Below, piece after piece: positions 1,163 through 63,781 of a stretch of DNA of 64,000 nucleotides (position 1 is its first letter; each line of letters begins with the position of its first letter). Both the position numbers and the translations under genes were made by a program. Location of the stretch: NCBI GenBank assembly GCA_036245805.1, contig BTRK01000001.1, positions 23,815,087 through 23,879,086 of the forward strand, read 5' to 3'. The notes beneath the pieces are model-generated. The model was not told the DNA's origin. It made no database searches and worked only from the letters and a program-made list of their open reading frames with translations. Origin of the DNA: Pristionchus mayeri. Its lineage: Eukaryota > Nematoda > Chromadorea > Rhabditida > Neodiplogasteridae.

Positions 1163-2312
1163 CTACTGGGGACCGAGAGTGACACTCTTCACGTGCGGCT
1201 CCTCCTCCTTCTTCTCCTCCTTCTTCACTTCTTCCACTGGTCTGAAATGGAGATTGGCCATTCCCTGCCATTCACCAAGGAATCTCGTCCGTCCTCTCAC
1301 TCAATGGAAGAGAGAGGGGGAGCACTCACTCGTTCTTCTGTCCCCCTGTCGTCCCTCCCGACATCACTCCAGTCGCTGTCGTCTCGCGAGATCTCAAAAA
1401 TATCATTCATTGATCAACCTGTCTACCGTACCCTCCACTGTGTAATCCATCAGCGCTCTTCAGGTCCTCCATTTTCTTGCGTACCTGCAGTAATCTGATG
1501 ATTGGTATGTCTAGGGATAGCAAACTGACATCGTGGACGTTCTTAGAGTTCCCTGCCATATCAGCCTGTAGTTGCCTGAGCGAGGAAGTGACCTTGGACT
1601 CGAGAGCGTCCGTCTTCCTCTGAGATCTCCCATTGACAATGTGACTCCCCCTCCCCCCTTCCCCTCCTTTTCTCTTTCCCCCATCCCTTCTCCCCCCTTT
1701 CCTTGCCTTGCTGTGGCAGAGACGAACGAGGAAGAAGATAATGACAGGCACGAGGGCGAGAGAAAGACCGAATAGGATCGAGTACACCAGTATCGGGAGA
1801 TTACCCTGATACAGTGCATATCGATTGAGAGATAATGACAGTGACCTACCCGATCGTGCGCCATACTCGCCTTCGCCTTTTCAGCCATCTGGGAAGGATA
1901 CGGTAGTGATTATCGTAGGGCGCGAGGGCAGACCTTATCCAGATGGGGGAGGAAGGGGTCGACGTCCTTGTCACATCCAGTAGTTTTGCACTGACACTCG
2001 ACCGCAAGGATGACCTTATTGGGGGAAGAAGCACCTGAAGAGATCAAAGATCAACCCATCCCCTTGAGTGACCTACTCTCCACGAGTGTGAACTGACACG
2101 TATCACTCAGAGGTGTGCCACAAGAAGTTGTATCGATCTTCTCAACGAGAAATACAGTAACCTTTGTGTAGTGAAGCATACAGTACCCGTCCGATGATTA
2201 CCACTCGACACACTTGGTCGTCAGTGCACGATTGAGTTCCCCCTTCACATTCCAATCCAGTGGAGAAGAGAATAGATGAGAGGAGGAGGAAGAGTATGGA
2301 TTGACCTCCCAT
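1163..2312 (-). CDS. Cys-rich single-pass (type I) membrane protein, nematode family unknown
   Basis: Nine exons (2312-2187, 2161-2077, 2034-1934, 1888-1850, 1805-1707, 1619-1530, 1484-1432, 1392-1330, 1241-1163) join in consistent phase to give 244 residues. A signal peptide (MGGQSILFLLLSSILFSTG) precedes an ectodomain of about 95 residues with spaced cysteines, including ECQCKTTGCDKD, which recalls small nematode Cys-knot or ET/Ly6-like modules. A hydrophobic segment (YSILFGLSLALVPVIIFFLV) follows, then a cytoplasmic tail ending in a Lys/Glu run (EEVKKEEKKEEEPHVK). The intron after residue 153 appears to use a GC donor (AAG|gcaagg). I do not recognise a named family. The architecture suggests a cell-surface receptor or adaptor. 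The exon order is well supported by phase; function is unknown. Confidence 0.75.
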
Positions 2313-2419
2313 TGGCGAGGGGAAAGAGCAGAATGAGAGAAAATGAAACTCATTTCTTCTTGTTTTCTTATTTCTTCTATGAAAAGGTTTATCAAATGTA
2401 TAAAAATGAATTCAATTGA

Positions 2420-3012
2420 TCAGCAGAGAGTAGCCAACGTGCAGATTTCCTGGGGGTCGGCCTTCGAGATGATTCCCACCACGAGATCGTCCACCTTCTG
2501 CAGAGATCAAAGATCAACTCGATCCTCTCTCCCTCCTACCCCACCCCCATGATGGCATTGAAGCAGTCTTGCTGTAGCTTCTTCAGGGGCAGTTTGTCGC
2601 ATTCGGGCTGAAAGGAGGCGACGATTGGAAGACGTCGTCTCTGATGGATGCACTCTGCACACCACGCACCTTCACGTATCCGGCAATCCAATCCACCAGC
2701 TCGTCTTCTCCCATTTGCTCTCCTCCCTCAATTCTCGCTTTAGATATTTAGGCATTTTTTCTTTTAGAGATTCCATTTTGAGATACCCCAGGAGAGATTG
2801 CTAATGCAAGGGTACCTTGATGAGATCCTTGCAGATGGGACACCACATTCCGTCCATGGCTGCATCGTCCTCTACAATCTAATGTTTATGGCAATTATAA
2901 ACTATGCACTTTATCGTTTTCAATAGCCCATACTGCTGAACTGACTCTGTCCAGTGAGGATGGCAGAAGAGTAGACGAGAGAGAGGAGAGAGAGGAACAC
3001 GAGGAGTCTCAT
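2420..3012 (-). CDS. Saposin-like (SPP/caenopore-type) secreted protein
   Basis: A short gene of five small exons. Exon 1 encodes a signal peptide (MRLLVFLSLLSRLLFC). The mature part carries the six-cysteine saposin-B pattern in order: CPIC, then EDELVDWIAGYVK, then PEC and QQDC, then KVDDLVVGIISKADPQEIC and a final C just before the stop. Spacing and amphipathic helices match one saposin-B domain. These proteins bind or permeabilise lipid membranes. In nematodes many are gut-secreted antimicrobial caenopores or lysosomal lipid carriers. The last intron (about 2544-2498) contains GATCAAAGATC beside its 3' splice site. The exon 1 donor (TCA|gttcag) and the 5' edge of exon 3 are the weakest points. 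Family call firm, specific role inferred. Confidence 0.85.
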
Positions 3013-3514: not shown

Positions 3515-5698
3515 ATGAGTCCGCCTCCTCCTCTGCGACGATCGACCAGGGTGAAGACAGGTGAGTACCCCCCCCCCCTCCTCCCCTCCCTCCCTCCCTC
3601 CCTCCCTCTCTCATCGACCATTCAGCCACCACGAGAAGTATGGCTCCTGAGGCGAAGAAAGAACGAAGTATGGGAAAGGAAACGAAGAGGAAAGCGAAGA
3701 GTGAGATGAAGAATGCAACGGGAGATAGAATGGACAAGAGGAGCATCAAGAGGAGCATCAAGAAGGACAAGGAAGAGAAGATGAAGGAAGAGAGGGAGGA
3801 AGAGAAGATGAAGGAAGAGAGGGAGGAAGAGAAGATGAAAGAAGAGAGGGAGGAAGAGAAGATGAAGGAAAAGAGGGAGGAAGAGAAGAGGAAGGAAGAG
3901 AGGGAGGAAGAGAAGAGGAAGCAAGAGAGGGAGGAAGAGAAGAGGAAGGAAGAGAGGGAGGAAGAGAAGATGAAGGAAGAGAGGGAGGAAGAGAAGAGGA
4001 AGGATGAAGAAGAAGATGAAGATGAAAGGGAGGAAGAGGACATTAAGTCGTGCAGTGACATGGACATCGCCACAACAGACAGTGATCGAACAATCAGAGC
4101 AGATACAGGTTGAGGGGAGGGAAGGATGGGGGGAGAGGGAAGGATTCAGAGATCGGTGAAGAACTGGAGGAGAGGAATTATGAGGAAGAAGAAGAGGAGA
4201 AGGATGGGAAGGGAGATGGAGAGGAACAGGGTGAGGAACCATCGAGGAAACACTCACAGTGAGATGTTGCAGTTTGTATTTTCGAGAAGGATATAGGCGA
4301 GGAAGAGGAGAAGAAAGTGGAGGATGAGGATGAAGGAAGCCAGGAAGAAGAGAAGACTGAGGAGGGAGGGAAGGAAGAGGAGAAGGAAAAGCCCCAGTAC
4401 AATCACAAGAAGGGAGGGTCAGTTACTGTATTTATTCATCGATCACTCATTAATTCTATTCAGCAAATTTGGACTGTCGGACTTCGAAATCGGGAAGCCG
4501 CTAGGAAAGGGCAAGTTCGGGAGTGTTTACCTCGCTCGAATCCCCAACCCGGGGTTCATTGTGGCCCTGAAGGTACGGTTGGGGGGCATACAGTAGACGT
4601 ACAGTAACTATTTGCCTTTCAGATTCTCTTCAAGTCTCAGCTGCAGAAGGCGAAGCTGGAACGGAATCTACAGCGAGAGATCGAGATCCAGGCACATCTC
4701 AGGTCAGAGATTGATACGAATCGATCGATACCGTACTCTTTGTTTTGAAGACACCCGCACATCCTCCGTATGTACTCTTACTTCTGGGACGACAAGAAGA
4801 TCTACCTCGTATTGGAATATGCAGAGGGAGGGGAACTATTCAAAATGCTGCAGGAGAAAAGGAAGTTCGACGAGAATACTACTGCCAAGGTGAGCATGAA
4901 CTATGATCTCTGATCTCTGATCTTTGATCTCTCTTGAGTACATCTTCCAAATGGCGGACGCCCTGATGTACTGCCACCAGAAGAGTGTCATCCATAGAGA
5001 CATCAAACCGGAGAATATCTTAATCGGTATATCACTCCGTCCTCTCCCCTTTTGATCACTCCCTCATAGGATCGGATGGCGAACTGAAACTGGCAGACTT
5101 TGGCTGGAGTGTTCACGCCCCTTCCAAGAAGTATCGATCGATAGACTCTTTCGCTACCGTAACCCTCCTCTTCCAGACGAGATACTCTGTGTGGAACACT
5201 CGACTACCTCCCACCCGAGATAATCGACAGCAACGTATACGGAGAGGAGGTGAGTTGAATGGAAGAGAGATCAAAGATCAACATTCTCTTCGTTAGGTGG
5301 ATCTCTGGTCATTGGGAATCCTGTGCTACGAACTGCTGGTTGGATTCGCCCCCTTCGCAGATGAACATGAGGGAAGAACGAAGAGGAAGATATTGAAGGT
5401 ACCCCCCTCCCCCCCCCTCTCCTTCCTCGATCCCTTCTCTCCTTCAGGGCGAGTTCGAATTCCCCCATCACGTGTCAGAGGGAGCACGTGATCTGATAGG
5501 GAAACTACTCAAGAAGAATCCCCAGGAGCGACTTCCACTCAAGAAGGTACCCCCTCCACCTCCCCCTTCCCCTCCCCCTTCCCCTCCCCTCCCCCCTTCA
5601 TCTCTTCCATTGAGGTGATGACCCACCCCTGGATCGTCAGCCATGTGATTGGAAAAGGAGAGAAGAATGGTCCGAGATCCAAGTCTACTGCCTTCTAA
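3515..5698 (+). CDS. Aurora-family serine/threonine kinase with long charged N-terminal extension
   Basis: Thirteen exons sum to 1590 nt and encode 529 residues. Residues 1 to about 251 are low-complexity Glu/Lys/Arg (see the repeat at 3781-4005). The kinase domain follows: Gly loop [14 protein letters not shown], catalytic Lys in [14 protein letters not shown], Mg-binding ADFGWS, activation loop [15 protein letters not shown] with the activating Thr, and [15 protein letters not shown]. It ends ..[14 protein letters not shown] and [12 protein letters not shown] are Aurora signatures, and all catalytic residues are intact. Auroras drive mitotic and meiotic spindle and chromosome segregation. 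The sequence does not decide between AIR-1 (A-type) and AIR-2 (B-type). I start at 3515 because the first exon joins in phase (G|CC). A shorter form starting further downstream is possible. Introns near 4890 and 5250 carry GATCTTTGATC or its complement. Confidence 0.93.
3781..4005 (+). repeat. 27-bp coding minisatellite in the Aurora N-terminus
   Basis: About nine tandem copies of a 27-base unit encode MKEEREEEK or RKEEREEEK. Variants differ mainly at ATG/AGG (Met/Arg). The reading frame stays open throughout. The encoded stretch is predicted to be a single highly charged helix. Confidence 0.9.
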
Positions 5699-9260: not shown

Positions 9261-9390
9261 GAGGAGGAGGAGGACACTCGAAGAGATTATGAAGGGAGAG
9301 AAGAAGACGAGTCATCGAGTAGTGATACAGGCAGAAATAAAGAGAACTACTGAACGATTGTATTGACATGCGATTAGAGACCGATCTAGC
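8985..9390 (+). repeat. Direct repeat, copy 1 (Smad gene 3' exons and flank)
   Basis: This segment is recognisably repeated at 14545-14950. It includes the last two Smad exons, the intron between them and about 120 bases of 3' flank (common end: attgtattgaca followed by cgattagagacc). Confidence 0.8.
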
Positions 9391-15139: not shown

Positions 15140-15174
15140 CCAGATGGAATAGAGGGCATAGCCACGTATTCAGT

Positions 15175-16969
15175 ATGATCTCCCTCGTTCTCTTCGTCTT
15201 CTTCTCATCGGTTGCACTCGCTGAGGACAAACTGGTATTCGTGCAAACGGTTGGTTGAAGGACCAAGCGAGAGTCGCTGAGATCAATCTACAGTTATGGA
15301 GGCACGGAGATCGAATACCGAAGGAGACGTACCCGAATGATCCGTATCAGAGGGAATTCTGGGGAATGCCATGGGGAGAAATCACACAGGTTAGAGATCA
15401 ATCACTCTCGCCATTCTGTTTCATTTATTTGTGACTCGAGAAAGATCTTTCTTCTTCGACTGAATGGGATGAATTGGTGATTGAGGATGGAGTGAAGCAT
15501 CTCTTCATGCAAGGGAAGAATCTGAGGGAGATGTACGTTCAGACGGGCTACTTGAATAGAAGCTACGACAGTGAAGAGGTGAAGACCTTCCGCCGTCCCT
15601 GATTATTGAGTGAATGGTAGATCACTCTCTCTTCGGCAGAGGCCAATCGAGCAGTGCAGTCTGGAATGGCCATGATGGCGGGATTCTACTCGGGTGAGCA
15701 GAGGAATCATCAGTTACAGTAGTGATTCATTGTGATCAGCTGACTACCCTTCTCAATTGTTTTCCCTCGTGGACATTGATCTCATATCAGATACCCCCCA
15801 ATCTCTTCCCTCACTTCCCGATTGGCCCTCGGGATGGTATCCCGTTCCCTTCCAGACCACTCCCAAGAAGGAAGACAGAGTGAGACATCCCACTCAATCG
15901 ATAATCCTCCCCATCATCAGGAGATGGAAATGGTCTGCCCAGCTGCGGATGAAATGCAGAAGAAGAGGGAATTGACTCCCCAGTTCCAGGATTATCTGGC
16001 CAGCAATTGGGTAGGCATCTCTCATTCTCTCCTTCACACAATTCGCTGTGAAGATTATCGAGAGAGAGGATTATCCATTCTCATAAATCAATTAACTCCA
16101 GAACCTCTATGCATTGCTTTCTTTCTACGGAGGACAAGGACAAGTTGATAACACATACCAAGTCCTCAAGGACTGGGCGACTACCGTGAGAGTTGAGGTG
16201 AGAAGTGACTCCCTTCCAATCAACTCACCCCCATTCAGAGAGAAGACTTCAATCTCACTCTCCCTGCATGGATAACCGATGAAGTCTATGATCAACTGCT
16301 GCAGGCTTATTGGGATGGACACGATTTCCTCGACGGATTGGGTATGATAGAAATTGTTCTCAGTGCAGCATTCTCTACTTTTCAGCTGGATTCGGACTGC
16401 CTCAGGACGATGAGTATATCAAGCTGAAGGGGGGATATCTACTGAACGAGTGGAGATCCAATCTGAAGGATGCGAAGAATGGAAAGAAGGGAATGGTCAA
16501 GTACCACGGATACTCCGCTGTCAGTCTTTCTCCTCGAGTTGATAGATGGGATGAGTAGTTCCTTCGATGCTTCATCTCTGTTTCTTCAGCACGACCACAC
16601 GATCACTTTCCTGCTGCATACTCTGGGGGCGAAGCAGTCAGTGATGGGAGTGGATATCGCCCAGTATGCAGCCACTCTCATCTCAGAGTTGTGGCTGAAG
16701 GATGGGGAGTACTTCGTGAGGGTGAGAGTGACCAACCCCCTCCCCCCTCCCTCTCTCCCTCCCTCTTCAGTTCCTCTACCTCGACAACTGGACATCCTCT
16801 TCTCGACCCATCACTCGTCTCCTTTCTCCCTGCCCCTACGACTCCGACTTCTGTCCCTTCCAACAATTCTACGATGAGACGGAGAAGTTCTCCAAGAAGA
16901 AGGATAACGTAGGTCACGCGAACTTAGAACTGATTAACGAATTATTGATTTCAGGCTTGCGACGTCTAA
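15175..16969 (+). CDS. Secreted histidine acid phosphatase 1 of 3
   Basis: Signal peptide MISLVLFVFFSSVALA, then EDKLVFVQT and the catalytic motif LWRHGDRIP, where the His forms the phosphohistidine. Family blocks follow: DPYQREFWGMPWGEI, SGWYPVPFQTTPKKEDR, NLTLPAWITDEVYD, and the second catalytic HD motif at the start of an exon (HDHTITFLLHTLGAK). The C-terminus has PCPYDSDFCPF and ends ACDV. Both active-site motifs are intact, so it should hydrolyse phosphomonoesters at acid pH in the gut lumen, a lysosome or outside the cell. It is the most divergent of the three tandem paralogues. The exon boundary around 15460-15600 is less certain. Confidence 0.92.
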
Positions 16970-19646: not shown

Positions 19647-21361
19647 ATGAAGTTCTTCTTTGTACTTCTCTTTACTCCAGCCGTCCTATCAGCTGACGAG
19701 CTTCTCTTCGTGCAAACAGTGAGTAAAGGAGGTCGATACCTAGATTCCCTCCTTTCTTCTAGTTGTATCGCCATGGTGATCGTACTCCCACGGGAACGTA
19801 TCCCACTGATCCCTACCAGGAAGACTTCTGGGGAGTTCCATGGGGAGAGTTGACTACGGTAAGAGAAGAAGGGATAGAGAGAGAGAGAGAGGATGGAGTT
19901 GAGATGGGGATGAAGCAGCACTTCCTGCAAGGACAGAGACTCAAGAGACTCTACGTGAACAAGGAGGGCTTCCTGAGTGGGAAGTACAGCAGATACGATG
20001 TAGTCTGTCTCCCTCTCTCTCTCCTCATCCCTCCTCCTTCAGACTTCCATTCGATCTGCTGACGTTCCTCGATGCCTTCAGTCTGCCGTTGCTCAGATGG
20101 CAGGCTTCTACTCTGGTATCGATTATCGATCGAGTAGGTCAAATCACAATGAATACTTAGGATCACCAACACACCCCTCCGATCTTCCTGACTGGCCCGT
20201 AGACTGGACTCCTCTCCCGATTCATACCGTACCTCACAATGAGGACAGGGTACGGCGGAGCTACCGTACCCTTCGATTATAAATCGCTAACAGGAACTGG
20301 AAGCCGGTGTGAATTGTGATCGAGCTGATGAGTTGCTTGTTCAAAGAGTTCTCAAGAAGAATTTCCTGGATTTCATCGCTTCCAAATGGGTACGGTAGAC
20401 ATCGAAATGGAATCGATAATTGTCCACTCAGCAAATAATCGCGGACATTTTGATTCATTCTGGAGGAGGATACGAGGCTGATTTCGACACTCTCCAGCAC
20501 ATTTGGGGTGCGATCAGCATAGAAGTGAGGAAAAAGGAAGAAACGAGAGATCAAAGATCACTCTGCAGAAAGGAGTCTACAATCTGACTCTTCCGGACTG
20601 GATCACCGATGATTTCTACAATGCTCTTGGGGGAGCGATAGAGGAGGGACTGGACTACGTCGATGGAGGAGGTCAGCTGCATCTACTCGAAGGGGTTATT
20701 TTCTAAACAAGCTAAATATTAATTTCCAGCTGGCTTCGACTATCCCGAGGACACAGAACTACTGAAACTACGCGCAGGATTCTTCCTGAAGGAATGGATC
20801 AAGAACATCAACAATGCGATTGCAGGAAATGGACTGAAGTACTACAGCTACTCATCTGTGAGATCAACTAGAATCTATCCATTCGTGTAGTTTATTTCAG
20901 CACGATAGTATGATCACTGATTTCCTGCTGCTTTTGGGGGCAAAAGAGAAGGTGATGGGAAAGGGAAATCCCGAGTACGCGTCTACCGTAACCTGCGAAG
21001 TGTGGAGGAAGAGCGATGGATTCTATTTGAAAGTATTCATTCAATCAATCGATTCGGAATTCAAAATCGTATTTCAGTTTATGTACTCTGCTGATGCCTA
21101 CAGTGATTTCGTTCCTTTCACCAGGTGTGAAATAAAAATTTACAAAAATATTCATAACATGCAGATTCATCTCTGGTTGTCCTGATTCCGATGATTTCTG
21201 CCCAGTGAATTCCTTCATGGCTCGATCTCAGCCTTACATTCCTGCTAATGCAGATGTCAGTTATCTCATACTATTTTTCATAACAAGAAATTCAGGACTG
21301 CAAGAAATTGCAAATTCCATTATTGATTCATCGCTTCCTTGCCATCGAGATAAAAAAATAA
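19647..21361 (+). CDS. Secreted histidine acid phosphatase 3 of 3
   Basis: Signal peptide MKFFFVLLFTPAVLSA, then DELLFVQT, active-site LYRHGDRTP, PTDPYQEDFWGVPWGELTT, QHFLQGQRLKRLYV, DWTPLPIHTVPHNEDR, NLTLPDWITDDFYN and HDSMITDFLLLLGAK (catalytic HD). C-terminal SGCPDSDDFCPV carries the conserved cysteines. The proposed last exon starts at 21296 (DCKKLQIP) and stops at 21361. An alternative last exon with more cysteines lies just downstream (21379-21534). The intron ending at about 20569 contains GATCAAAGATC ten bases from the 3' splice site. Complete and presumably active. Confidence 0.9.
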
Positions 21362-24193: not shown

Positions 24194-27100
24194 ATGGCGC
24201 CGGGAGTCTCATCATCGTTGGCTGTGGCTCCTGCTCCTACTCCTCTTCCTCTTCTTGCTGATCTCTCTCCCATCCCTTCGATGGGCACTCTTCCCTCCAC
24301 GAGTACTCACTCGTCCCCCCGTATCCCTCTCTCGAGGAAGAGGCCCAATGCTGCCGCCCTTCCCTCCATCGGACTCATCCCTTCCAAGAAGGAGAAACCT
24401 CTCCTCTTCCCCTCTCCCGTTCTCCCTCCTGCGGAAGACTTCGAGAGGAGGAAACGAGAGCGATTCGAGAGTGGTATGTTACAGTCTATCCATTGATTGC
24501 AATTGATGATACAGTAGCTCTAAGCAGTAAACACTTAATTAAATTGTAATTAATATTACCGTATGTTGTTGCAGACAGTAGTTCGCAATCGTCCGTATCA
24601 TCGCAAGGGTCGTCATCTGACGAGAGTTCTTCTACTGGTCTTCTTCCCCGTCATATCATTGATTTCGTGGTCAGCATTCTCTTCTTAGCCTCCATCTTCC
24701 ACTCTCTAGGCTGTACCTTGTGGTGTGTCTTTCGTGTAATTTCGCAATCACTTCCTGCCACGGGGTAGGTCATTTCGACACCAGACGGGTCGATTGAGCA
24801 ATATGACGTATGCTTTTCGAAAATGTGTGGTTGCGTAAGAGTGCGAACGAAAGAGTACACAGTGGTTCAGTGAGCGGTCGACGGAGCAAGCATGGCCCCG
24901 CTCGCTCCCATTGTGCTCCTCTCTCTTCCCTCTCATCCCTCCTCCAGATGCTCCCTGAAGCGTCCCTATCCCCCCTCTTGGTTGCAGTTAGATGAACCCT
25001 CTTCTGCCTCGTCGACTCCTGGTGGAGCTACTCCCCAAGAGCCCCCTGCCAAGCAACTCGCCCTCCCTCACACTGCAGCTGCCACTGCCAGGGAATGCCG
25101 TGCCAACGCCTTCCACGACCAATCCGTGAGCAACGTTTATTTTATATCAATAATATTTATATGTTTCACTTATTCTGAAGTGAGTATTCGATTGCAGGTT
25201 GTTGTGGAGAAGAAGGAAGAATGTGCTCGAGTTTCCTTCATCAGCCCCGAGAAGGCACTCGGACCGTACCTCGAGAGCGGATCTCTGGTGAGCACCTGTC
25301 TTCTTCCTTGCCAGTACAATGCAGCTTTGATGAATGCATGAATGAAGAGTAATCTCTCGCATTTCAGATCAATGGCTACAAAATCATTGGAATGGGCAAA
25401 GACGCGAGTGCCCTCCATCTAGAGACCGGCGAGGTGTACAATGTTCGAGTGAGTGCAACCACATTAATATTACAGACTTCAATATTTAAAACTTATCGCA
25501 AGTTTGAAATATAATTGAATATTTGATTTACAATATTTCGAAATATTATTTACTCGTTGGAGCATGACGCAGAATTGAGTGTCCTGATTAGGAAATATTT
25601 CGATTGCAAATGTTTTTGTTTCAGTTGATCACTGAGAAGGAATTCCAAACAACTGTGCAAGTCGCGGAGAGACTGGAGATGGCTCACGAAATGTGCAAGG
25701 AAGAAGAATGGGACATCGATGAATTGAGGTGAGCATCACTCATCCAGAAGTAATCTTCCTGTGTACGGTAGTGGCATGGAGTGATCTTTGATCTCTTGCA
25801 GTGAAGCAGTGCTTCCCTCGGAGGCCGAAGTGGTGGAGCAAGATCTGGGAGAGAAGGGACGACGATTCATTCTCTTCGCCCCCTTCGAGTACTCCAATCT
25901 GCACGTGATGGCCTCCAACACGAGTGCCTCGAGTCAGTTTGGACTGCCAGAAGAGAAAGTGGCCTCGTACTTCAAGCAGGTCAGTGCAATCACCACTTCT
26001 TCTATATTCTAATATAAATTTAAACAAGATATTACTGGTATCTTTTTAAGATAGCGGGTCTGATGGCCTTCTGCCACCAGATTGGAATCGTAGTGAGGGA
26101 TCTCAAACCGAGGAAACTCGTGTTCGCCAATCAGAGTCAGACTAAGATCAGGTGAGGGATGGGAAATGATGATGAAAGAGGAGAAGAGTGGGAGGGAAGA
26201 GGAAGACAGAGGGTGGTGATGAAATGACCAGTTGACCCCCTCGTGATTATGAAAGGGTAGGGGACTATTGATGCATGGCTGTAAGGGGATGATAATGGTG
26301 CAATGGCAGACTCTCGGATGTCTTCGATGTAGCAGTGTGTGACAGTGTAAGCGACGACTTGTTCACGGAGAAGTTCGGCAGTCCTGCCTACATTCCTCCC
26401 GAGGTATGCCAACGAGAAGGGAAGATCGATACTCATCCCCTACCGTACCCTCAGGTGCTCGCTGCTCGCTCCAATGGATTCGCGGGCAGACCAGCCGATG
26501 TGTGGGGTCTGGGCGTACTCACTTTCCTTCTTCTGTCAGGTGAGAATCGATGGAATTATAGTGTGCAAAGAGGTCATGATTATGAAATGGGTTTACTACT
26601 TTCTCAGATCGAGTGCCTAATGTCTTATTGTTTAGGGAAGTATCCGTTCTACGACTCTAATCCCCGCGGAGTCTTCAAGAAGATTCGTCGTGCTCACGTG
26701 TGCTTCCCCTCTGGACTGATTCTATCCCGATCTGCCAGAGAAATCGTCCATTGCATGCTGAAGAAGAGACCCGCTGATAGACCTGACGCCGCCCTACTAG
26801 CACAGATACCATGGTTAGTTGGAAGGGGAGGGGATGAAGTGTGTAGGAGGAAGTCAATATTATGATTGAGTTGTTAACTGGGAGTGTTGCAGGGTGACAG
26901 TGAAGGATTGTGCGGCGACGTTGCGTGAACGGGCGAACCACATGATCTCCCCCCAGATGAGCAGTCTGACGTCACTCAGAAGACAACGACCAGTCATCAT
27001 CCCCTCTTCCGTCAGTTCACACATTTATTGATTTTCTCCCTGATACTTGATGAGAGGAATAGGGATTGGAAGGGGATGGAATGGGTAGATGTGAAGAGTG

Positions 27101-29541: not shown

Positions 29542-31649
29542 ATGAGCAACGAGAATACTGCCTTCAATGATGGACTGTCCGGTGTTATGTCAGTTTCCCT
29601 ACCGTATTCTCTTGCCTCTATCGTTTCATAATGCTTCTACCGTATCCTCTTCAGCACCAGACTCGATGCTTCCTTCGCTGGCTCGGAAATTACTGAGATA
29701 ACGATGCTGCAACAGCAAGAAGTCACTCTCAAACTGGCCAACCTCACGGGCAAGGTCTGATAAGGGAGATCGCTACTCACTTACAGTCCCCCGATACTTT
29801 ACGATACCGTAATCTCAGGATGTCCGCACAATTGTGTTTGGCAAGAAGGAGTTCATAGTGGAGGATATCGGCACTCCTACATCGGCAATCATCAATAAGC
29901 ACTTTATGGTCGGAGACGTGATTACTAAGGCACGGTTGTGGATTACGGTAGGATAAGGAAACCAATACTTGAAGGTGAACGGAAAAGTTGTCGAGCCTCA
30001 TGCATTAATCAACCATATGTTGATCGCAATGAACGTGGTGAGGAAGGAGGAGTACGGTAACCGTGATGAGTACTAGAGTTTGAAATGTAACGCTACCCGG
30101 GATACTTGTGACACGAGAGCGCAGAATGATCAGGAGGGGAGGAATGAATTACCCGCAAATTCTGTTCAATTACCCGGGATAGTTGGATGCAAATCGCAAT
30201 TTCGCATCATTTCTGCACACTTTTGCGAAGAGGGATGGTCATTGAACTATCCCGGGTAATGGGCTTATTATTATTCACTATCCCGGGTAATTCTCATTCG
30301 TCGCCATTCATCTTGATTACCGGTCGGGTCCGAATTACCCGCCCCGAATTAAAATCTCTAATGAGTACTGTACCCATTCAGGCTACGGTGGTCCTCAAGC
30401 GACGTGCATACGCTTCCGTGCCGGAGGAGGCGCGATTACGCAACATATTGGCAGAAGTAGGAGGAATATTGATTGGACCTACTACCGTTTCCTTGACAGT
30501 ACTCGCAAACTCGACTGAAAGGATTCGCTTACCAAGTGATCACGTGCAACAAAATGAGCGTGCGACAAGAAAAATTGGTCAAGAGCACTTTCGGATTCCA
30601 CGCTGTCGTCCTGGGTGGAAAATTCGTCGTCGTGAAAGTACGGTAACTCCTCCTTAAGAATGCAGTTTAGGAAGTAGTGTATCCGTCTACTAGGGTGGTC
30701 CTTTGAGATGGCAGAGCACTCAGTGGCAGAGAAGTTCTTCTCGATTGGGGATGCTTTACTCGATCTGAATGGAATGCCCTTTCGACCATTAGACAGCAAG
30801 GAGACCAACCTCAGTCTCATCAACAAAGCCTTCCTTAAGTAAGTCCCTCGTGATCTTTGATCTCTCCGTCCCTCTACAGGACCGGGGAGATATCCATCCT
30901 CATCGAACGTCCAGTGACTGCAAAAGCACGGAAAGAAGCGTGTGTGAGGATGAAGAATTACCTGGTGAGAAGGAGGAAGAAGAAGGAAGGGGAGGAGCCA
31001 TCTCCCTCCCTGAAGGTCCCTCCAGACTACGAACCAAAGATGACCAAAGATGCTGCGGAGATTGGAGCAAAAGCAGCCAAATACCATGGGACGTTATGGA
31101 AGTGAGTGAGAGGATGAGTAAGAGAGAGATTGCCTCCTTCAGACGAATTACTCCCGTCGGCATCGTCAACTTAGGACATAAAGCATCGCCTAAGAAGAGA
31201 TCGAAGAAGAGTGATAAGAAGAAGAAGGGAGAGAAGGATGATGACGGTGAGGAGAAGGGAAGGACGAGAGATGAGGAAGGAATTGCAGTCAAGTCGACCC
31301 TAATCTCGAACACGGCATCGACTATTGCTGGTCGAGTCTCCATCGATCCGAAGAAGAACTTCGCAGAGATCGTATCTGACACGACGGATCTGTCGGAGTT
31401 GGAGGTGAGAGGGGGGAGAAGATGAGTAGTGATGCCCTCCCTTTGCAGTCAGTGGGACCTCGATACAGCGAAGAGTCGACGGAGAAAGACGAAGTGAGGA
31501 GGGAAGAAGGGATTGAGAGGGAGGAAGTGATTGCAGAAGAGAACGAGGAAGGGAACTTCCCTTCTCTCCTTCCTCATGAATTGAAGAGAGAAGAGAGAAG
31601 AACAACAACTATTGATAACAAACATTTTACTGATTTCTCGTGCAATTGA
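29542..31649 (+). CDS. Tandem PDZ-domain protein (SMZ-like nematode family)
   Basis: Starts MSNENTAFNDGLSG. PDZ 1 includes EVTLKLANLTGKDVRTIVFG and GDVITKVNGKVVEPHALINHM. PDZ 2 includes STFGFHAVVLGGKFVVVKGW, SVAEKFFSIGDALLDLNG and TGEISILIERPV. A basic/acidic Lys-Glu-rich tail (SPKKRSKKSDKKKKGEK) runs to the stop at 31649. The carboxylate loop G-F/L-G-F is degenerate. Nematode proteins with this two-PDZ layout include sperm-enriched SMZ-1/2, so a germline adaptor role is plausible but inferred. The third intron seems to use a GC donor (AAG|gcacgg). The fourth intron is unusually long and holds the palindromic repeat at 30090-30350. The gene converges with the minus-strand QSOX gene 267 bases away. 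Confidence 0.82.
30090..30350. repeat. Palindromic CCCGGG-rich element in PDZ intron
   Basis: Repeated words AATTACCCGGGATAGTT and complements (30093, about 30169, 30245, 30278, plus partial AATTACCCG at 30150 and 30335) give several alternative stems. It accounts for most of an intron far longer than its neighbours, so it is likely a MITE-like insertion. Confidence 0.7.
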
Positions 31650-31915
31650 ACATCGCAAATTCAATAATAATATTAGTGGCAAGCTATGCTGATTGAATCG
31701 AGTAGAGAGAAAGAGCGCGAGAGAGAGAGAGCTATGGAAATTAACACGAAGGAATCTAATCGATTATTACTACTGTATGGAACGAATGGGAGGCACCGTA
31801 TTATGATCTACTTAGTAGATTCGGAAACGAAAGGAATATTAGAGGAGGAAGTGGAAGAGTGCTTCTATGGAGAGTTGTCATGGATTGGAAATGATCTTTG
31901 ATCTACTCTATTGAT

Positions 31916-37434: not shown

Positions 37435-37986
37435 ATGACCTCGTTCAAGATGGACGATATCGTCAAATTGAATGTAGGAGGACAAAGGTGAGATCACTCA
37501 TGCACTTCTTCCCCCAGCTGTTCACTCTTATCCTTCTTCGTCTAGATTCGATACTCGTCTTCGTACTCTTCTGGCTGATCGATCGAATGAGCTCTACGCT
37601 CACTTTGTCGTTCTCCTCGAAGGAGATCTCACTGAGGGGAAGATGCCTCCCAGAGACGGAGACGGAAATGTAAGCATCCCCCTAGCAACTCAGTGATTAC
37701 TTCATTTAGTAGTAATCCGTTTGAATTATTTACCCTTTTGAGTCCTATTCTCTTCCTCCTTTTAGTTCTTCTTGATCGAGATCCCGATCACTTCCGCACT
37801 CTCCTCAACAATCTTCGTTTCTACGTGCAACTGCAGGGTGAGTAGTGGATGACGTCACTCGATGATCTTTGATCTCTTCCAGCCAAGCAGAAAGTCGCCA
37901 ATGGGACGAATGGAGTGATCGAGGCAGAGGAAGACATCAGATCGACGAAGAGTGTCGGATTCATCGGAAGACTACTCAAGAATTGA
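37435..37986 (+). CDS. BTB/T1 (KCTD-type potassium-channel tetramerisation) domain protein
   Basis: Starts MTSFKMDDIVKLNVGGQRFD; VKLNVGGQ.F.T is the T1/KCTD entry motif. It continues TRLRTLLADRSNELYAHF, GKMPPRDGDGN, LDRDPDHFRTLLNNLRF and a tail SVGFIGRLLKN. KCTD proteins oligomerise through this fold and often act as Cullin-3 adaptors. The protein is short, essentially one T1 domain plus a tail of about 35 residues. The join between the exon ending at about 37670 and the one starting near 37767 is out of frame by one base as I read it, so an acceptor is misplaced or a base is missing. The last intron carries GATCTTTGATC at 37864. Confidence 0.82.
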
Positions 37987-41200: not shown

Positions 41201-42420
41201 CTATAGTGAGAGGAGAAAGGAAGACGACGTTTACGGGGTACGAGATTCATTGGGTAGAGACTCTCCGTGGTTCTCCCTATCCCTGTACTCATCCCTCGTC
41301 AACTACTACGATGCACTCTTATTTCCTCCTCTCGAAACCCATGATTGCTCAATCTTCTGGCGGAACAAAGAATTGAGCAGGGGAAAGCGGGAATTTCGGG
41401 CAGGTAAACGATGGAGGGAAGGAGAAGGTAGAGAAATACTCACTTGCTGCTAGAGGAAGGAGGACGATTCTCCATGGGAGGAAGGATGGAGAGGGAGGAG
41501 GAAATTGACTCACTACGAGTGTCCACTGATCGAAGGCGATGAGAACTGACAGGAATTATGGGTACGAACAAGATTAATGAGAATCAATGAGAATGAGAAT
41601 AGTCTCACGTTGGTTGAGAGGAGGAAGGGAGTTTATTGTGGAGATTGACCTCCTGGGATGATTCCTCCCTCGCGATCTGAATGAGAAGATGAAGAGAAGA
41701 GTAGTGAGGTCGGAGAGACTTCCCTATGTGAATTCAGTGCTTCCGTCTTTTACTCTCTCCCTCCATTCTCCCTCTCTCTACCTCCCCCCCTCTCCCTCCT
41801 TCTCCCACGTCTCCAAGAGAAACACTTCTACCTCTCAAAAGAAGCGTACACTTATTCAAAAAGGTGTGATTGATGTAGTGGAGGGTTATAATGGAAAAGT
41901 AACCTCTGGAGATGCCTCAGCTTCCTGCTCATTCCACTCCTCTTGTACTGGTTTCGACGAAGAAGTCAGTCTGGTGAGAGATCAAAAGAGAGAGGAGAGA
42001 TCAAAGATCACTCACATCGTGGTTGAGGAGGGAACACAACCCATCCATGGATCGGCCTTCTCTTCCTTCCTTTTGAACGAGAACGGATTGAAGAGGGAGA
42101 AAGCACTTGACCCTAAAAGATCAAAGATCGAGAAGAACAGTTTATGAATATGAGAAGCCTACTTTGCATTGACAGAGAGGGGAGAAGGGGGATTGAGGAC
42201 TGTTCACGTTTGGTAGCTACGGGAAACGAGAAGTCGTGGGAGATATCTACACTACAAATCAGAAGGAGAGAATAACGAGAGACGAGGAAATGAGGAATCT
42301 GAGGACTGAAAACGAATAGGGCTGTCAATCGCCTTCACTGCTTCAATTATACCATTGGGTACATCCGTGTTCCATTCCCTTTCTGAATATGAACGTACCT
42401 CGGTATTGCTTGGTGTACAT
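38223..42420 (-). CDS. Tubulin tyrosine ligase-like (TTLL) glutamylase
   Basis: The N-terminal 115 or so residues (start MYTKQYRGSSAFSLFNPFSF) are Ser/Glu-rich. The TTL core follows in order: CARKIGFTE, CDIYWHNVVYSD, SSRVNKFPGM, MQRIFPHEYSFYPKSW, the ATP-grasp lysine segment GWFIVKPDEG, GTGIYLINN, FDFRVYGVIKS, ARFCTEKY, HLTNYSLNK, KLWHDIKLIIVKT, FDIMVRENGEPILLEVNAAP and LVRDTLLLVLN. A C-terminal region follows (SEVFTRIRVRSHFLIEIFPT onward) of the kind in TTLL4/5/6/7/11-type polyglutamylases. These add glutamate chains to tubulin C-termini in cilia, neurons or centrioles. The Lys, HLTNY and EVN metal/ATP residues are present. The specific subtype is not decided; TTLL11 or TTLL5 is possible. 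N-terminal exons at 42420-42399, 42113-42010, 41970-41905, 41655-41600 and 41560-41440 link by phase. Confidence 0.9.
39452..39558. repeat. 107-bp inverted-repeat element in TTLL intron
   Basis: A perfect 22-bp terminal inverted repeat: AAAGTTTCCCAGTGGGATCC (plus CA) on the left and the exact complement on the right. Internal degenerate copies of the same word (cccagtgg, gatcccgc, tcccactgg) are present. MITE-like, no coding capacity. Confidence 0.85.
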
Positions 42421-45200: not shown

Positions 45201-47069
<1,869 letters not shown>

Positions 47070-58802: not shown

Positions 58803-60567
58803 ATGGCGGCGGATCAGTTTTCTACGCTGAATTTCCTCTTGAAAGGAAATCAAACTGACACGGACAGTACGATATCGATGGGAGTGTGGCTAAATAGTAA
58901 GTCTTCCTAATGCGTTGTCTATTGATCATCTACAGTATTTCATCTACCATATCTTCAGCTGTTTTCCACGACGAAGCTGCGAGAGTCCATTTGGGATTCC
59001 TCCTATACACCTTAATCGGATTTCTCTCCACATTTATCATTGGAATCTTCCGTTCTCCGCCCCCTCACCCCCCCCCCCTCTTAATTCGTGCCTCCTCCAT
59101 AATTGAACCTTCTTTCAGTTTATGATTGTTTATAAATACATCAGCGTAATTCGACTGAAGAACAACATGTACTATCTGATCTTCCTCAATCCAGTGAGGG
59201 ATCCATTCCTACCGTACTCTTCCCATTTACCGTATCTCTCCTCCTACTGTACTCCTACAGATCTCCTCCTTCTGCTGTTTCTTCGGAATGGCCTCTCCTC
59301 GTAATGCTGCCTTCATGTACGGAGTGATTCTGTCGTGAGTGATCTCTCCCTCTCAGAGATCAAAGATCACTCAGATACCACATGCTGGCCCTTCGAATCG
59401 CCCTCGATGTGATGTTCAATATCAACGGAGGAAGAGTGACTCTCTCGAAGATGCTCACAATGAACAACGAGAGGATTCGATTCACGGTTAGTCTTTGATC
59501 TCTCGAGAGGAAAGATCAAAGACCACTTCAGTTCTTCCCCTTCTGTCTCTTCAGCAGATGCATGCCCTCATTCGCTCCCACCGTGTTCGACCCCTCCCCT
59601 CTCCCTCCTTCATCCCTCCTCCCTTCAGCACGAACATTGCTCGATTCGAGATGATTGTCTCACAGACGTGCATCGTTCGAATCGTCCTCATGATCATCAA
59701 TATCTGCGTCTATCGAGAGATCGGAACTCTCAATCACTTGTCAGTCCTCCCCCTCCTCCCCCTCTCCCTTCATCATTTCAGTTGGTTCTTCGTATCTCAC
59801 GCTGTCTCCGTAGTCTCTTCCTGTATCGCTCTCTACTTCTCGTATGCGATATCAGCAGTGAATCGAGTGAGGAGAATGACGTCATCGTAGTCGACAATGG
59901 GAATGATTCAGGAGAACTCGAAGAAGTTCCGTTTCCAGTATCTCTTCATGATGGTCGATTGGTCACAGACACTCCTAACATTCCAAAAGTACCCTAGACA
60001 TTGGAGAAGAGAGATAATAACAACATTGAGGACGGGATTGGACATCCTCTCTTGGGCTAATCTCTATCCTAAATTTATCTTCCCCAGTCAATTCGTCGAG
60101 GTCACTCACTTCGGAGAATCCATTTGTGAGTGAAAGAGAGAGAATGAAGAAGGGAAAGAGATTGCAGATCTTCTCTTCTTCATCTATTCCCTCGAAGTTC
60201 TCATTATGAGTGCACTCATCACCTACCTCCTTCGTCCCTCAGTTTCATTCATCTTCGACAGGTTCCTCCCTCCTCCTTCCCCCTCCCTCCTCCCCTCTCC
60301 CCCCACCTTTCTCTCACTCTCCTTCTAGATACACTGGTCTTCGCACGTGGAGGGAGCTGTGGACGATGGGGTACTGTAGTCGTCTATTTCCGATTATCGA
60401 TTGGTTGTTAAGGCGTACGAAAATCTGAAGTCGCAGTCTAAAAGTTCAATGAACAAAGTACTGCAGCAGGAGCAGAGTGCAGATGACTTCTTCAAGGGTG
60501 AGAGAGAGAGAAGGGAAAGAAGGGAAAGATCTATTTTGCAGTGCCTCCAGATCAGAAAGAGGGATAG
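58803..60567 (+). CDS. OST-alpha family (SLC51A) transporter, copy 1 of 2
   Basis: Starts MAADQFSTLNFLLKGNQTDT, an extracellular N-terminus without a signal peptide. Hydrophobic segments follow (VHLGFLLYTLIGFLSTFIIG, YKYISVIRLKNNMYYLIFLN, CCFFGMASPRNAAFMYGVIL). Next come the family's Cys-rich turn FPFCLFSRCMPSFAPTV and then RFEMIVSQTCIVRIVLMIIN, HAVSVVSSCIALYFSYAISA and LFFIYSLEVLIMSALITYLL. It ends VPPDQKEG. F-P-F-C...C.P.(V/F)AP followed by a Q-(S/T)-C-x-(V/I) helix is diagnostic of OST-alpha/DUF300, a seven-helix carrier that works with OST-beta in bile-acid, steroid and organic-anion efflux; worm OSTA proteins also affect cilia and stress. The first intron-exon junction near 59050 is not resolved. 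Confidence 0.88.
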
Positions 60568-60862
60568 ATGACCTAGAGAGAAGAGATCAAAGATCGACAA
60601 TCGATCAACACAACATTTCGGAATAAAGAATGGAGACGTTTCTATTCCCTATTGTACTAACACACCATCCTAATGATAGAAAAGTTTGAACGACACGTTA
60701 ATTTGATCGTTGTGCGTAAGATGCAAATGGGAATAACCCTCTTCTCTCCCTCTCTTCTCCTCTCTTCACTTCTTCCTTCTCCTCACGATGGAAGGGGTCG
60801 TCTCTCCCACTCCCCCTTCCAATTCCTCTCAATTCCCAATCTCACTGAAGGACTCGCCTTCT

Positions 60863-62858
60863 ATGTCCCACTTCCTCAGTGGTATGTTATCTACAGTATC
60901 CAACTACCGTACCCATCTACAGAATCGTTCCGGGAAATGAATAAGTACTTCATCATGTTACTGATTACATTTTTCTGTACCCTGATCACCCTTCTCATCG
61001 CGATAGTCCACGTGAGTGTATGGAGAAGAATGGAGGGAGAGGGATTCGGGTATTCAGACCTTTTACATTTCCAAGTACGTGAGCTTACGACGATTGCGCA
61101 ACAATCTCTACTACATCGTGGCACTCAACCCCGTAATATTTGATTTTTGATCTTTATCTCAATTTATCTTTGCAGGTTTGTTCTACCTGCTGTCTATTCG
61201 CTATGATGATGCCTCGCAATCTGGCCTTCCTCCAGGGAATCATACTCACGTCAGTCGATGACCCTCTCAATAGACTCTTCCTCTGCATCTCCTCCATTCT
61301 CTTCCCTCGATCTCCTCTTCACCTCAGGTATCAGATGATCGCTCTTCGCATCTCAATCGACATTCTCTTCAACATCTCCGGTGGTCGAAGACTCCTCTCC
61401 GATCAACTGAAGGCCTGCAAGGAGAGTATCAAGTACAAGGTGTGCTCCTCTTAACCTACCGTATCCCTCCGCTTCCTCTCGTAGGCATTTCCCTTCTGCT
61501 GCTGCGGGTGTCTGCCCGTGGTGGCTCCCTCCGTGTGAGTGCACCCTAGAGTGAGGGAGATCAAAGATCAATGCAGGAGGAACATCCGGAAGCTGGAGAA
61601 CTTCATCTCGCAGTCGTGCAGAATAGTACTGCAAGTGGCAGATATCTGTGCAATGAGGGAGACTGGCAAGACACACAATTGGTACGATGGGGGCATCTCC
61701 CAATGATGAGGAGAGAGTAGTGATGGGTCAGCAGTTAAGAGATCAGAGATCAGGTGGTTCGTCTCCTCGTATGTCTTCTCCTTCATCACCATGACTGCCG
61801 CTCTCTATTTCTCGTTCGTCGTCTTCAATCTCAATCGAGTACCGTAACCCATGGGTTACTGTAGTTTTCAATCGATTCTCATTCAGGACACGAAAAACAA
61901 GTCCCGCTACAATTACCTCTTCTACATGGTAAACATATCGCAGATTCTATACACTGCTCAAAGGTATTTTCTCAAAAATTATTCCATAGTGATTTAATAA
62001 TTTGAGAACTGTATTCGGCGGCTTCAAGCACATGCAGACTTTGTTTTCCGCTGATACGGAAAAAGAGCCTTTCCCGATGTCTCTGATCGCCTATGACTAC
62101 TTCATAGAGACCTGTGACCTACCCTACCCATCGATCGATAATCCTCCTTCCTTCAGATTACCTCATGTTCGTGTTCTCAGTGGAAATGGCAGTGATGTCC
62201 TGCATAATCACAGTGACCATGCGACCAGGACTCTCCTATCTCTTCGATTCGTGCGTTGAGGGGGGGGAAGGGGGGGGGAGGGGACTGTCTCCCTGCAGAT
62301 ACACGGGTCGAGCTGACAGTATTCATGTACAGTACATGAAACTCGAGAAATCTTCTCGACCAGACAAGGAATCGAAGGTGACTCTCTCGAATCCAATGCC
62401 TCGCAATGCAGAATTGAGAAGGAGTCGATGAAGGAGTTGAAGGGAGTTCCCATCGGACAAGACACTGGCACGAAGACTCTCGGAGAAGAAACGGTGAGGA
62501 GAAGAGATGGAACAGAGATCAAAGATCATCCAGGAACTAATGAAGCCGAAGCTTACGACTGCAATTGAGGACGATGGGGTGAGGAAGGGAGGATTGAGTA
62601 GGGATGACGAAAGAGATTCAGAACTATGAGAATCTCAATGCAGAGTCGAATACAACAGAGCTGAAGAAGGTGTTGAAGAGCATGGAGAAGAGTGAGGATT
62701 CCTCCCTCTCTCTCTCCCTCATTCCTTCCTTGCAGAGTAGATCGAAGACTGTCGATCGTCGAAGAACAAATCAAACTAGCGCTATTAGTCAGAATAAAGA
62801 TTGGAGACAAAGAAATGTGTTTACGAGAAGAATGAGGAGAGAGTCCGGAGAGGGATAA
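60863..62858 (+). CDS. OST-alpha family (SLC51A) transporter, copy 2 of 2
   Basis: Starts MSHFLSESFREMNKYF, then FIMLLITFFCTLITLLIAIV, YVSLRRLRNNLYYIVALNP, MMMPRNLAFLQGIILT and NISGGRRLLSDQLKACKES. The family Cys-rich motif is FPFCCCGCLPVVAPSV. It continues RRNIRKLENFISQSCRIVLQ, SSYVFSFITMTAALYFSFVV, YLFYMVNISQILYTAQR and SVEMAVMSCIITVTM, then a long Ser/Lys-rich cytoplasmic tail to 62858. Exon structure matches copy 1 exon for exon, so it is a tandem duplicate; the FPFCCCGCLP motif is closer to the animal consensus here. The gap to copy 1 is 295 bases, compatible with either separate promoters or an operon. Introns near 61559 and 62517 carry GATCAAAGATC. Confidence 0.88.
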
Positions 62859-63156
62859 CAACTGTTCGTAGGAAGGGAGGGAGAGACAAGAGTGACCAAG
62901 CACAGATCATCACAATTAGACACTCCTTCTGATGATCTACTAGATAGATAGGATTCATTATTAGTCGTCCATTCATGATGTCATCTTCACTCTCCTGGGT
63001 CAATATTTTGACTGATCCCACTATCTCCATCAACATTTGTCTGTTTGTCAGAGCAGCGGTCACCCAAAGAAAAAATTCCGTTTATTTACACAAGAAGTAG
63101 TAGTTTTTGAACTCTTTCGAAAAGAGGGATGAGTTAGCCCATCTATCAGAGATTGT
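62859..63156. other. Convergent intergenic, no gene seen
   Basis: About 300 bases between the 3' ends of the OST-alpha copy 2 and transthyretin-like genes. 3'UTR sequence only. Confidence 0.5.
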
Positions 63157-63781
63157 TTAGATGCATTCAGTTGCTTCCTTAGGCTGCTTCGCCTCCATGT
63201 TCAGCACTCCGAAGTCGTAGAACCTGGAATGACATGGACTGATCTTTGATCTCTGATCTATTCTCACTTGGTGGGGGCCTTTCCAGGAGTGATGTAGTTC
63301 TTGGGGATCTCGTAAGTGATCTTCCTCTTGCACAGCTGACATTATCGATTGGAAAAGTGGACTGGGTACAGTAGCTAATGAGTACAGTACTTACACCGGG
63401 GAGATTGAAGAGTCCCTTGTTGTTGCATCTGTGGTAGATCTTGACGACGGGGTTGATCTGCGTCACCTCACTCTCGTGGCCCTCAAATGAATTCAATTAT
63501 CGCTCGGCTCAGCCCTGTCTACCGTACCTGGATCTGGAATCGGCCCTGGCTGTCAGTGTAGACGGTTGCGAGGAGATCATCCGGATCCGGCCCTAAAATA
63601 TCATGTATATTGAGGGAAAAAATACGGTAGACTGACAGGTATCGAGTTCCCACAGCTTGATCTCAGCATTGACGAGGGGCTGCTGACCACACATGAGAGT
63701 GCCTCTCGCCCCCACAGCCTGCTCACGGGCATAGACTGAGAAGGCGAGGGAAGAGAAGAGAAGGACGTAGAGGGAGTACAT
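63157..63781 (-). CDS. Transthyretin-like (TTR family) secreted protein
   Basis: Signal peptide MYSLYVLLFSSLAFSVYA. The mature start QAVGARGTLMCGQQPLVNAE is the TTR-family hallmark (V.V.G.L.C...P..N..V.L). It continues IKLWELDT, GPDPDDLLATVYTDSQGRFQ (D..G.F motif), EVTQINPVVKIYHRCNN, CKRKITYEIPKNYITPG and FYDFGVLNMEAKQP, and ends ATECI. Four cysteines pair as in the nematode family (PF01060-type). About 140 residues, which is typical. These are small extracellular beta-sandwich proteins; some bridge apoptotic cells (TTR-52) or act in neurons, and most have no known ligand. The intron near 63230-63275 carries GATCAAAGATC on the coding strand. An AGATAA site lies about 210 bases upstream. Confidence 0.94.

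What the first reader, a model, noticed from the sequence alone, without database searches (positions are those of the whole stretch)
2042..63251. GATCAAAGATC: an intron-embedded 11-mer repeated about 17 times next to 3' splice sites
Perfect copies of GATCAAAGATC or its complement start near 2042, 2505, 4919, 5269, 20549, 25783, 30852, 31893, 37864, 41999, 42119, 59358, 60585, 61559, 62517 and 63241, with degenerate ones near 59510, 61738 and 56389. Chance expectation for one 11-mer on both strands in 64 kb is about 0.03. At least 13 lie inside 40-75-nt introns of unrelated genes (saposin, Aurora, phosphatase, Tribbles, PDZ, KCTD, TTLL, OST-alpha, TTR), 3-20 bases before the AG, and in both orientations relative to transcription. 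This looks like an introner-like family, a splicing enhancer or branch-region word, or a binding site spread with introns. Seen: words and positions. Inferred: mechanism.
Basis: partly seen in the sequence, partly recalled or inferred. Interest (0 to 1): 0.87.

Follow-up and report, generated by a model that had tools for sequence, protein, structure and literature searches.

The report
Repeated splice-site word in worm introns
A free-living roundworm has thousands of copies of one 11-letter DNA word, many of them at the very ends of introns where the splicing machinery binds, which suggests a ready-made splicing signal spread through the genome.

Summary
The window lies in the Pristionchus mayeri genome. 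GATCAAAGATC occurs 16 times here and 15,962 times genome-wide, against 111 for the reversed word. It is a tandem pair of 7-nt units, RAGATCA. In the window 12 of 16 copies lie in introns of 40-73 nt, 9 of them 6-9 nt before the intron end. In sampled introns (loci picked by acceptor context left out) 17 of 48 copies are 5-9 nt from the acceptor, 3.5 expected. The U-rich form follows GTGAGT within 12 nt 489 times, often directly, and some longer introns carry the word at both ends. Introners are rejected for the introns compared: paralogues share the intron without the word and motif introns share little else. Best reading: a portable branch-point/pyrimidine-tract cassette acting in pre-mRNA (confidence 0.42). 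Against it: the A-rich form is also common near acceptors, and the genome-wide excess before CAGG is only about 1.8x and 1.35x. A DNA-level site is the main rival. No RNA data or sister-species DNA were available.

The parts
2035..2076 (-). 42-nt predicted intron with U-form word (2042-2052), 7 nt before its end
   Evidence: gene model only
2498..2544 (-). 47-nt intron of a saposin-like gene with U-form word (2505-2515), 7 nt before its end
   Evidence: deposited P. mayeri protein P0020 (PMAYCL1PPCAC_02598) joins the exons exactly here; P. pacificus P0022 aligns likewise; 'Saposin B-type' is the source name of relatives
4890..4938 (+).
   Evidence: Pfam Pkinase match runs through the junction
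5250..5296 (+). 47-nt intron of the same kinase gene with A-form word (5269-5279), 17 nt before its end
   Evidence: reading frame ...[27 protein letters not shown]; missed by the gene model
20525..20568 (+). 44-nt predicted intron of a histidine-phosphatase gene with A-form word (20549-20559), 9 nt before its end
   Evidence: two homologous introns of the neighbouring gene model (16198-16238, 17764-18406) lack the word
25729..25801 (+).
30839..30879 (+). 41-nt intron with U-form word (30852-30862), 13 nt from the donor and 17 from the end
31893..31903 (-). perfect copy without a supported intron, just past the predicted end of gene 31916-32281 (-)
37838..37882 (+). 45-nt intron with U-form word (37864-37874), 8 nt before its end
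41999..42009 (+). perfect copy, no gene model here
42119..42129 (+). perfect copy, no gene model here
59335..59374 (+).
   Evidence: P. fissidentatus and P. entomophagus proteins continue across the junction; the paralogous intron lacks the word
59487..59531 (+). 45-nt intron of the first gene with a one-mismatch A-form (59514-59524) and an inverted partial copy
   Evidence: boundaries read by eye
60585..60595 (+). perfect copy between two exons (60413-60496 and from 60823) of the deposited gene PMAYCL1PPCAC_02615
61535..61576 (+). 42-nt intron of the second gene with A-form word (61559-61569), 7 nt before its end
   Evidence: deposited P. mayeri protein P0017 joins the exons here; the paralogous intron lacks the word
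61682..61753 (+). 72-nt intron whose last bases are a one-mismatch A-form (61741-61751) followed directly by the acceptor AG
   Evidence: boundaries read by eye from P0017
62494..62533 (+). 40-nt predicted intron of the second gene with A-form word (62517-62527), 6 nt before its end
   Evidence: gene model only
63224..63267 (-). 44-nt intron of a transthyretin-like (TTR-52) gene with A-form word (63241-63251), 17 nt before its end, and an overlapping one-mismatch copy
   Evidence: P. fissidentatus and P. entomophagus proteins span the junction

Best explanation
The word is a portable splicing cassette of two tandem heptads. Its U-form reads UUGAUCU-UUGAUCU in the pre-mRNA of P. mayeri. Placed 6-9 nt before the intron end it supplies in one block the branch-site A (the A of the first GAUC, about position -17) and the pyrimidine stretch before AG. 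Placed right after GTGAG it supplies a U-rich stretch next to the donor, and some longer introns carry it at both ends. It was gained as a block inside introns that already existed. Shown: copy number, dimer structure, fixed distance to the acceptor, closeness to the donor, co-occurrence at both ends, introns without the word at paralogous positions. Inferred: that the first GAUC A is used as branch point, that a splicing factor reads the word, and how the block spread.
For: Position: without the three loci picked by acceptor context, 25 of 48 intron copies lie within 20 nt of the acceptor (10.2 expected from uniform placement) and 17 at 5-9 nt (3.5 expected); taking one copy per intron, 22 and 16 of 39 (8.5 and 3.0 expected); in introns of 80 nt or more 16 of 35 near the acceptor (4.0) and 9 near the donor (4.2, P 0.02). 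Randomly placed masked 11-mers give 23 and 9 of 158. Among the first 100 of 1,221 genome hits of GATCTTTGATCN{0,16}CAGG the gap peaks at 3-6 (54) with a smaller peak at 11-12 (17) and none at 7. TGATCTTTGATCTCTNCAG occurs 306 times against 0 for its reverse. Donor: GTGAGTN{0,12}GATCTTTGATC occurs 489 times against 1, gap 0 in 41 of the first 100; the A-form there occurs 155 times. Branch position: 290 introns without GATC in their last 40 nt show an A peak (0.43) at -16, next to the -17 where the U-form places its A. Both ends (up to one mismatch): 9 of 203 introns against 1.95 expected, or 4.0 when shuffled within loci (P 0.004); 8 of the 9 in the same orientation. Block gain: lone GATC and TGATCT are not in clear excess near acceptors in introns without the perfect word.
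Against: The A-form is common near acceptors too: 9 of 16 sampled copies within 20 nt (3.6 expected) and 937 genome hits before CAGG with gaps spread over 3-13; it is not pyrimidine-rich. Against a naive chance of about 693, the CAGG counts are only 1.8x (U) and 1.35x (A), so most copies are not shown to be near an acceptor. Donor enrichment in my sample is weak overall (13 of 48, 10.7 expected, P 0.24; 8 of 39 at one copy per intron, 8.9 expected). The two TGATCT peaks 7 nt apart follow from the dimer at a fixed distance and are no separate proof of phase. An A near -17 in motif introns follows from where the word sits. Motif introns do not have weaker splice sites (CAG 0.87 against 0.74), and paralogous introns lack the word. 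Introns come from a self-trained gene model without RNA data.
Confidence: 0.42

Rival explanations
1. A DNA-level binding site. AGATCA-A-AGATCA is a direct repeat of a hexamer with a 1-bp spacer, the layout of nuclear-receptor DR1/HNF4-type sites, and AGATCAAAG also looks like a TCF/LEF (HMG-box) site. A factor bound near exon edges could pause polymerase or mark exons.
For: Both orientations occur near splice sites: 6 and 6 in the window, 16 U and 9 A near acceptors in the sample, 1,221 and 937 genome-wide before CAGG. GATC-N3-GATC is by far the commonest spacing of those from 0 to 15 (101 against 5-15), and the commonest one-mismatch change is A to G at the middle position (10 of 56). Similarity to DR1 and TCF sites is recalled, from no call.
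Against: A DNA factor does not need a fixed distance to AG or contact with GTGAG. The U-form is favoured at donors 489 to 155, though part of that is because the U-form brings the T of GTGAGT.
Confidence: 0.29
2. A dispersed short repeat without function: copied around (tandem slippage, repair, or a repeat family that carries it) and kept mainly where it does no harm, in introns.
For: 15,962 perfect and about 28,000 one-mismatch copies (3,941 for the control) are what decaying copies could give. Some copies sit in repeated units roughly 105-135 bp apart (L020:839-1108; C1:7366251-7366884) or as a local array (L019:8892-8953).
Against: Tolerance would favour the middle of long introns, but 25 of 35 copies in introns of 80 nt or more lie within 20 nt of an end, against 8.2 expected. 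Flanks are unrelated in nearly all pairs.
Confidence: 0.21
3. Introner-like element: the intron itself is a mobile element with the word as its end.
For: Word at both ends of some introns; huge copy number.
Against: Paralogous introns at the same position lack the word (three, two homologous pairs). Boundary direct repeats 1.70 against 1.46 nt; 2 of 1,035 motif-intron pairs similar outside the word; opposite-orientation heptad in 1 of 46.
Confidence: 0.03
4. piRNA (Ruby-type) or snRNA promoter element in introns, as in P. pacificus.
For: In P. pacificus piRNA loci lie in introns of active genes (PMC6436959, abstract and passages).
Against: The word has no GTTTC core; it is absent from the 120 bp upstream of the 8 U6 genes read (8 of 48 found); 40-nt introns leave little room for a 21-nt RNA downstream.
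Confidence: 0.03

Closest known systems
Nematode 3' splice-site signal (UUUUCAG of C. elegans) and branch point
   Same: Acts just upstream of AG in short introns; this genome also shows T-rich NCAG ends and an A peak at -16.
   Different: An 11-15-nt dimeric word in a subset of introns, not a short consensus in all; occurs in both orientations and also at donors. UUUUCAG is recalled.
Highly regular 3' intron structures of intron-poor eukaryotes (Irimia and Roy 2008, PMC2483917; abstract and section list seen)
   Same: Strong branch-site sequence at a fixed distance from AG.
   Different: There it is a feature of intron-poor lineages; here of a minority of introns in an intron-rich animal.
[quoted passage not shown] 2008, PMC2481429; abstract and section headings seen)
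   Same: Short intronic words near the acceptor.
   Different: G-rich and C-rich motifs tied to weak tracts; here the sites are not weak.
C. [quoted passage not shown] abstract start and passages seen)
   Same: Repeated intronic words linked to splicing, some within minisatellites.
   Different: 24-base unit, mostly in clusters on chromosomes III and II, linked to alternative splicing; the text has no 'GATC' at a word start.
Introner elements (Amoebophrya, PMC7789003; passages seen)
   Same: Repeated intron-borne sequence in many introns.
   Different: Those introners carry inverted repeats and boundary direct repeats; tests for such features were negative here.

Membership tests
Introner elements | introns of a family are alike over their length | tested here: not met
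   2 of 1,035 motif-intron pairs similar outside the word
Introner elements | direct repeats at exon/intron boundaries | tested here: not met
   mean 1.70 nt in 46 motif introns against 1.46 in 326 others
Introner elements | intron arises together with the element | tested here: not met
   paralogous introns at the same position lack the word
Introner elements | inverted repeats at the two ends | tested here: not met
   opposite heptad in 1 of 46; 8 of 9 both-end introns have the same orientation
Branch-site / 3' splice-site element | fixed position relative to the acceptor AG | tested here: met
   17 of 48 copies at 5-9 nt against 3.5; U-form 13 of 32 against 2.2, A-form 4 of 16 against 1.4; genome-wide gaps of the A-form are broader
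Branch-site / 3' splice-site element | branch A at the usual distance | tested here: inconclusive
   A of the word at about -17, A peak of other introns at -16; use as branch not measured
Branch-site / 3' splice-site element | strand-specific | tested here: inconclusive
   U:A 489:155 at donors, 1,221:937 before CAGG; 6:6 in the window
Branch-site / 3' splice-site element | needed for splicing | not testable with these tools
   needs RNA
Nuclear-receptor DR1 or TCF/LEF site | bound by such a factor | not testable with these tools
   resemblance recalled only
Telomere-like repeat | matches the telomere unit | tested here: not met
   the starts of C2, C5 and C6 are TTAGGC arrays
Ruby/piRNA or SNAPc promoter | shared with snRNA promoters | tested here: not met
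   absent upstream of the 8 U6 genes read, of 48; other snRNAs not examined

The most novel reading that the evidence does not exclude
A block-transferred, splice-site-seeking word: a 14-nt heptad dimer that is copied as a unit to intron ends (onto the branch/acceptor region and directly onto GTGAG), in either orientation but best in the U-rich one, brackets longer introns, and so rewrites the splicing signals of thousands of introns in one lineage without making new introns.
Probability: 0.22. Interest if true: 0.88.

Novelty: new variant of a known kind. Interest (0 to 1): 0.65.

Why it matters
Splice signals are generally thought to change base by base. If a 14-nt word moves as a unit onto intron ends, splicing signals can be replaced in bulk, and a single animal genome offers thousands of parallel cases, some with matched paralogous introns that lack it. 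P. mayeri is a cultured nematode with a chromosome assembly and sequenced relatives (PMC11544036, passages), so the idea is directly testable with RNA-seq and orthologous introns.

Tried and rejected
Telomere-like insertion: rejected, three of six chromosome starts are TTAGGC arrays. Introner and piRNA/snRNA promoter: see rivals. Hairpin between intron ends: 1 of 46. Insertion into the word with target-site duplication to explain the four both-end introns with perfect copies: by my arithmetic the precursor introns would be 22-37 nt, two of them 22-23, too short. Base pairing with U2 snRNA: CTTTGATCTT is complementary to AAGATCAAAG, which I recall just 5' of the branch-pairing GUAGUA of U2; the register does not fit well and the P. 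mayeri U2 was never obtained. A larger repeat body: no consensus beyond the heptads in 64 copies. A donor pattern that I chose badly, AGGTNNGTNNGATCTTTGATC, found 4 places against 0. My first impression that nearly all copies are perfect held in the window only; genome-wide there are about 28,000 one-mismatch copies. Papers: the letters of the word occur in 12 held papers, none a nematode study by its title; the listings show no paper describing such a word in Pristionchus; a P. pacificus repeat paper has no 'intron' in its text (PMC9297572, passages). A paper on native introns in Pristionchus transgenes is not held. Rfam finds no RNA family in the window at gathering thresholds.
Full report
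Source. The window is bases 23,815,087-23,879,086 of contig C1 (39,712,045 bp) of a 290.8-Mb genome. Deposited Pristionchus mayeri proteins sit on contigs of exactly 39,712,045 and 57,250,744 bp, the lengths of C1 and C6. The published P. mayeri RS5460 assembly has 290.8 Mb, six chromosomes and 33,526 genes (PMC11544036, passages). TTAGGC arrays open C2, C5 and C6.

The word. The 16 copies are real and far above chance. Genome-wide there are 15,962 perfect copies against 111 for the reversed word, and 43,914 within one mismatch against 4,052. Aligning 64 copies (window, L013, L017-L027) gives A-R-AGATCA-A-AGATCA-M and no consensus further out. It is a tandem of a 7-nt unit: in 234 kb GATC-N3-GATC occurs 101 times, each other spacing from 0 to 15 occurs 5-15 times, and the three bases are AAA/TTT in 75 and AGA/TCT in 10.

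Introns. I trained a gene model on the sequence itself with the word masked to N: 372 introns of 30-1,500 nt in 234 kb. The 234 kb are the window, ten loci chosen because they hold the word (L017-L026), three chosen by TGATCTTTGATCTCTNCAG (L037-L039) and four taken at mid-chromosome without regard to it (L040-L043, which hold no copy). Of 75 perfect copies 60 fall in predicted introns, 10 between genes and 5 in exons. The model is not complete: two of the ten 'intergenic' ones (5269, 60585) lie in introns by reading frame or by a deposited protein. Checks on boundaries: deposited P. mayeri proteins join exons at 2498-2544 and 61535-61576, and proteins of P. fissidentatus and P. entomophagus span 59335-59374 and 63224-63267.

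Position. All 55 copies in introns of 30-1,500 nt: 31 within 20 nt of the acceptor (12.4 expected from uniform placement), 22 at 5-9 nt (4.4), 13 near the donor (13.0). Leaving out L037-L039, which were picked by acceptor context: 25 of 48 near the acceptor (10.2), 17 at 5-9 nt (3.5), 13 near the donor (10.7, P 0.24). In introns of 80 nt or more: 16 of 35 near the acceptor (4.0) and 9 near the donor (4.2, P 0.02). With one copy per intron: 22 of 39 (8.5), 16 (3.0) and 8 (8.9). In the window alone 9 of 11 are at 5-9 nt (2.0). Masking random 11-mers gives 23 of 158 near the acceptor and 9 of 158 at 5-9 nt, so the mask does not create the effect.

Form and genome-wide counts. Call the pre-mRNA reading GATCTTTGATC the U-form and GATCAAAGATC the A-form. 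GATCTTTGATCN{0,16}CAGG has 1,221 hits; the first 100, all on C1 and with some near-identical neighbours, show gaps of 3-6 (54), 11-12 (17) and none at 7. The A-form has 937 hits with gaps spread over 3-13. From the CAGG rate in the 234 kb about 693 would be met by chance, so the excess is 1.8-fold and 1.35-fold; the share of all copies near an acceptor must be lower genome-wide than in my gene-dense sample. GTGAGTN{0,12} precedes the U-form 489 times and the A-form 155 times, where a rate of 1 in 4,096 would give about 50 each (my arithmetic). The U-form often abuts directly (gap 0 in 41 of the first 100); part of its lead comes from its own leading T. In the sample, copies near acceptors are 16 U and 9 A, near donors 11 U and 2 A, elsewhere in introns 5 and 5.

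Both ends. With up to one mismatch, 9 of 203 introns of 80 nt or more carry the word near both ends, against 1.95 expected, or 4.0 when shuffled within loci (P 0.004); 8 of the 9 in the same orientation. With perfect copies it is 4 against 0.75. Same orientation does not fit a hairpin between the ends.

Branch position. In 290 introns without GATC in the last 40 nt, A is 0.43 at -16, 0.35 at -15 and 0.30 at -14 and -17, which I read as the branch site. The U-form at its usual place puts U-G-A with A at about -17 and pyrimidines after it. That coincidence is suggestive; it is not a measurement of branching.

Origin. Two related genes at 59.1-60.0 and 61.0-62.7 kb share three intron positions; each time one paralogue has the word (twice perfect, once with one mismatch) and the other does not. 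Among 17 homologous intron pairs of predicted genes, two involve a word intron (a phosphatase) and the partners lack the word. So these introns are older than the word, or have lost it. Introns without the perfect word show no clear excess of lone GATC or TGATCT near the acceptor, which speaks for gain as a block. Introner tests fail.

Judgement. The fixed distance to AG, the contact with GTGAG, two-ended use and the lead of the U-form speak for a splicing role in RNA. The A-form near acceptors, the modest genome-wide excess before CAGG, the weak donor signal in the sample and paralogous introns without the word speak against it being essential. I put 0.42 on the splicing cassette, 0.29 on a DNA-level site and 0.21 on a repeat without function.

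Noticed in passing
window introns and L018, L019, L023, L024, L026: A second intron word, CTACCGTA, is strand-biased: by my count of the listing 40 copies in the sense strand of predicted introns against 8 of TACGGTAG, often in loose tandem.
   Followed up: partly
33253-35394: About 2.1 kb AGAAGG purine-strand satellite, next to a 500-base N gap.
   Followed up: no
L020:839-1367, L017:2406; also C1:7366251-7366884: Repeated units roughly 105-135 bp apart carry the word.
   Followed up: no
326 predicted introns lacking the perfect word: TGATT lies exactly 4 nt before the intron end 12 times against 0.5 expected, perhaps a shorter relative of the same acceptor pattern.
   Followed up: no
C6:45.90-45.97 Mb: Array of U6 snRNA genes about 1.8 kb apart; 48 U6 matches in all.
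   Followed up: no
L015 and L016 starts (C7, C8): Contigs open with a CCCCGAAGTTTAC satellite.
   Followed up: no
59487-59531: Intron with an inverted pair GTCTTTGATC...GATCAAAGAC that could form a 10-bp hairpin; an exception, since the opposite heptad is in 1 of 46 perfect-word introns.
   Followed up: partly
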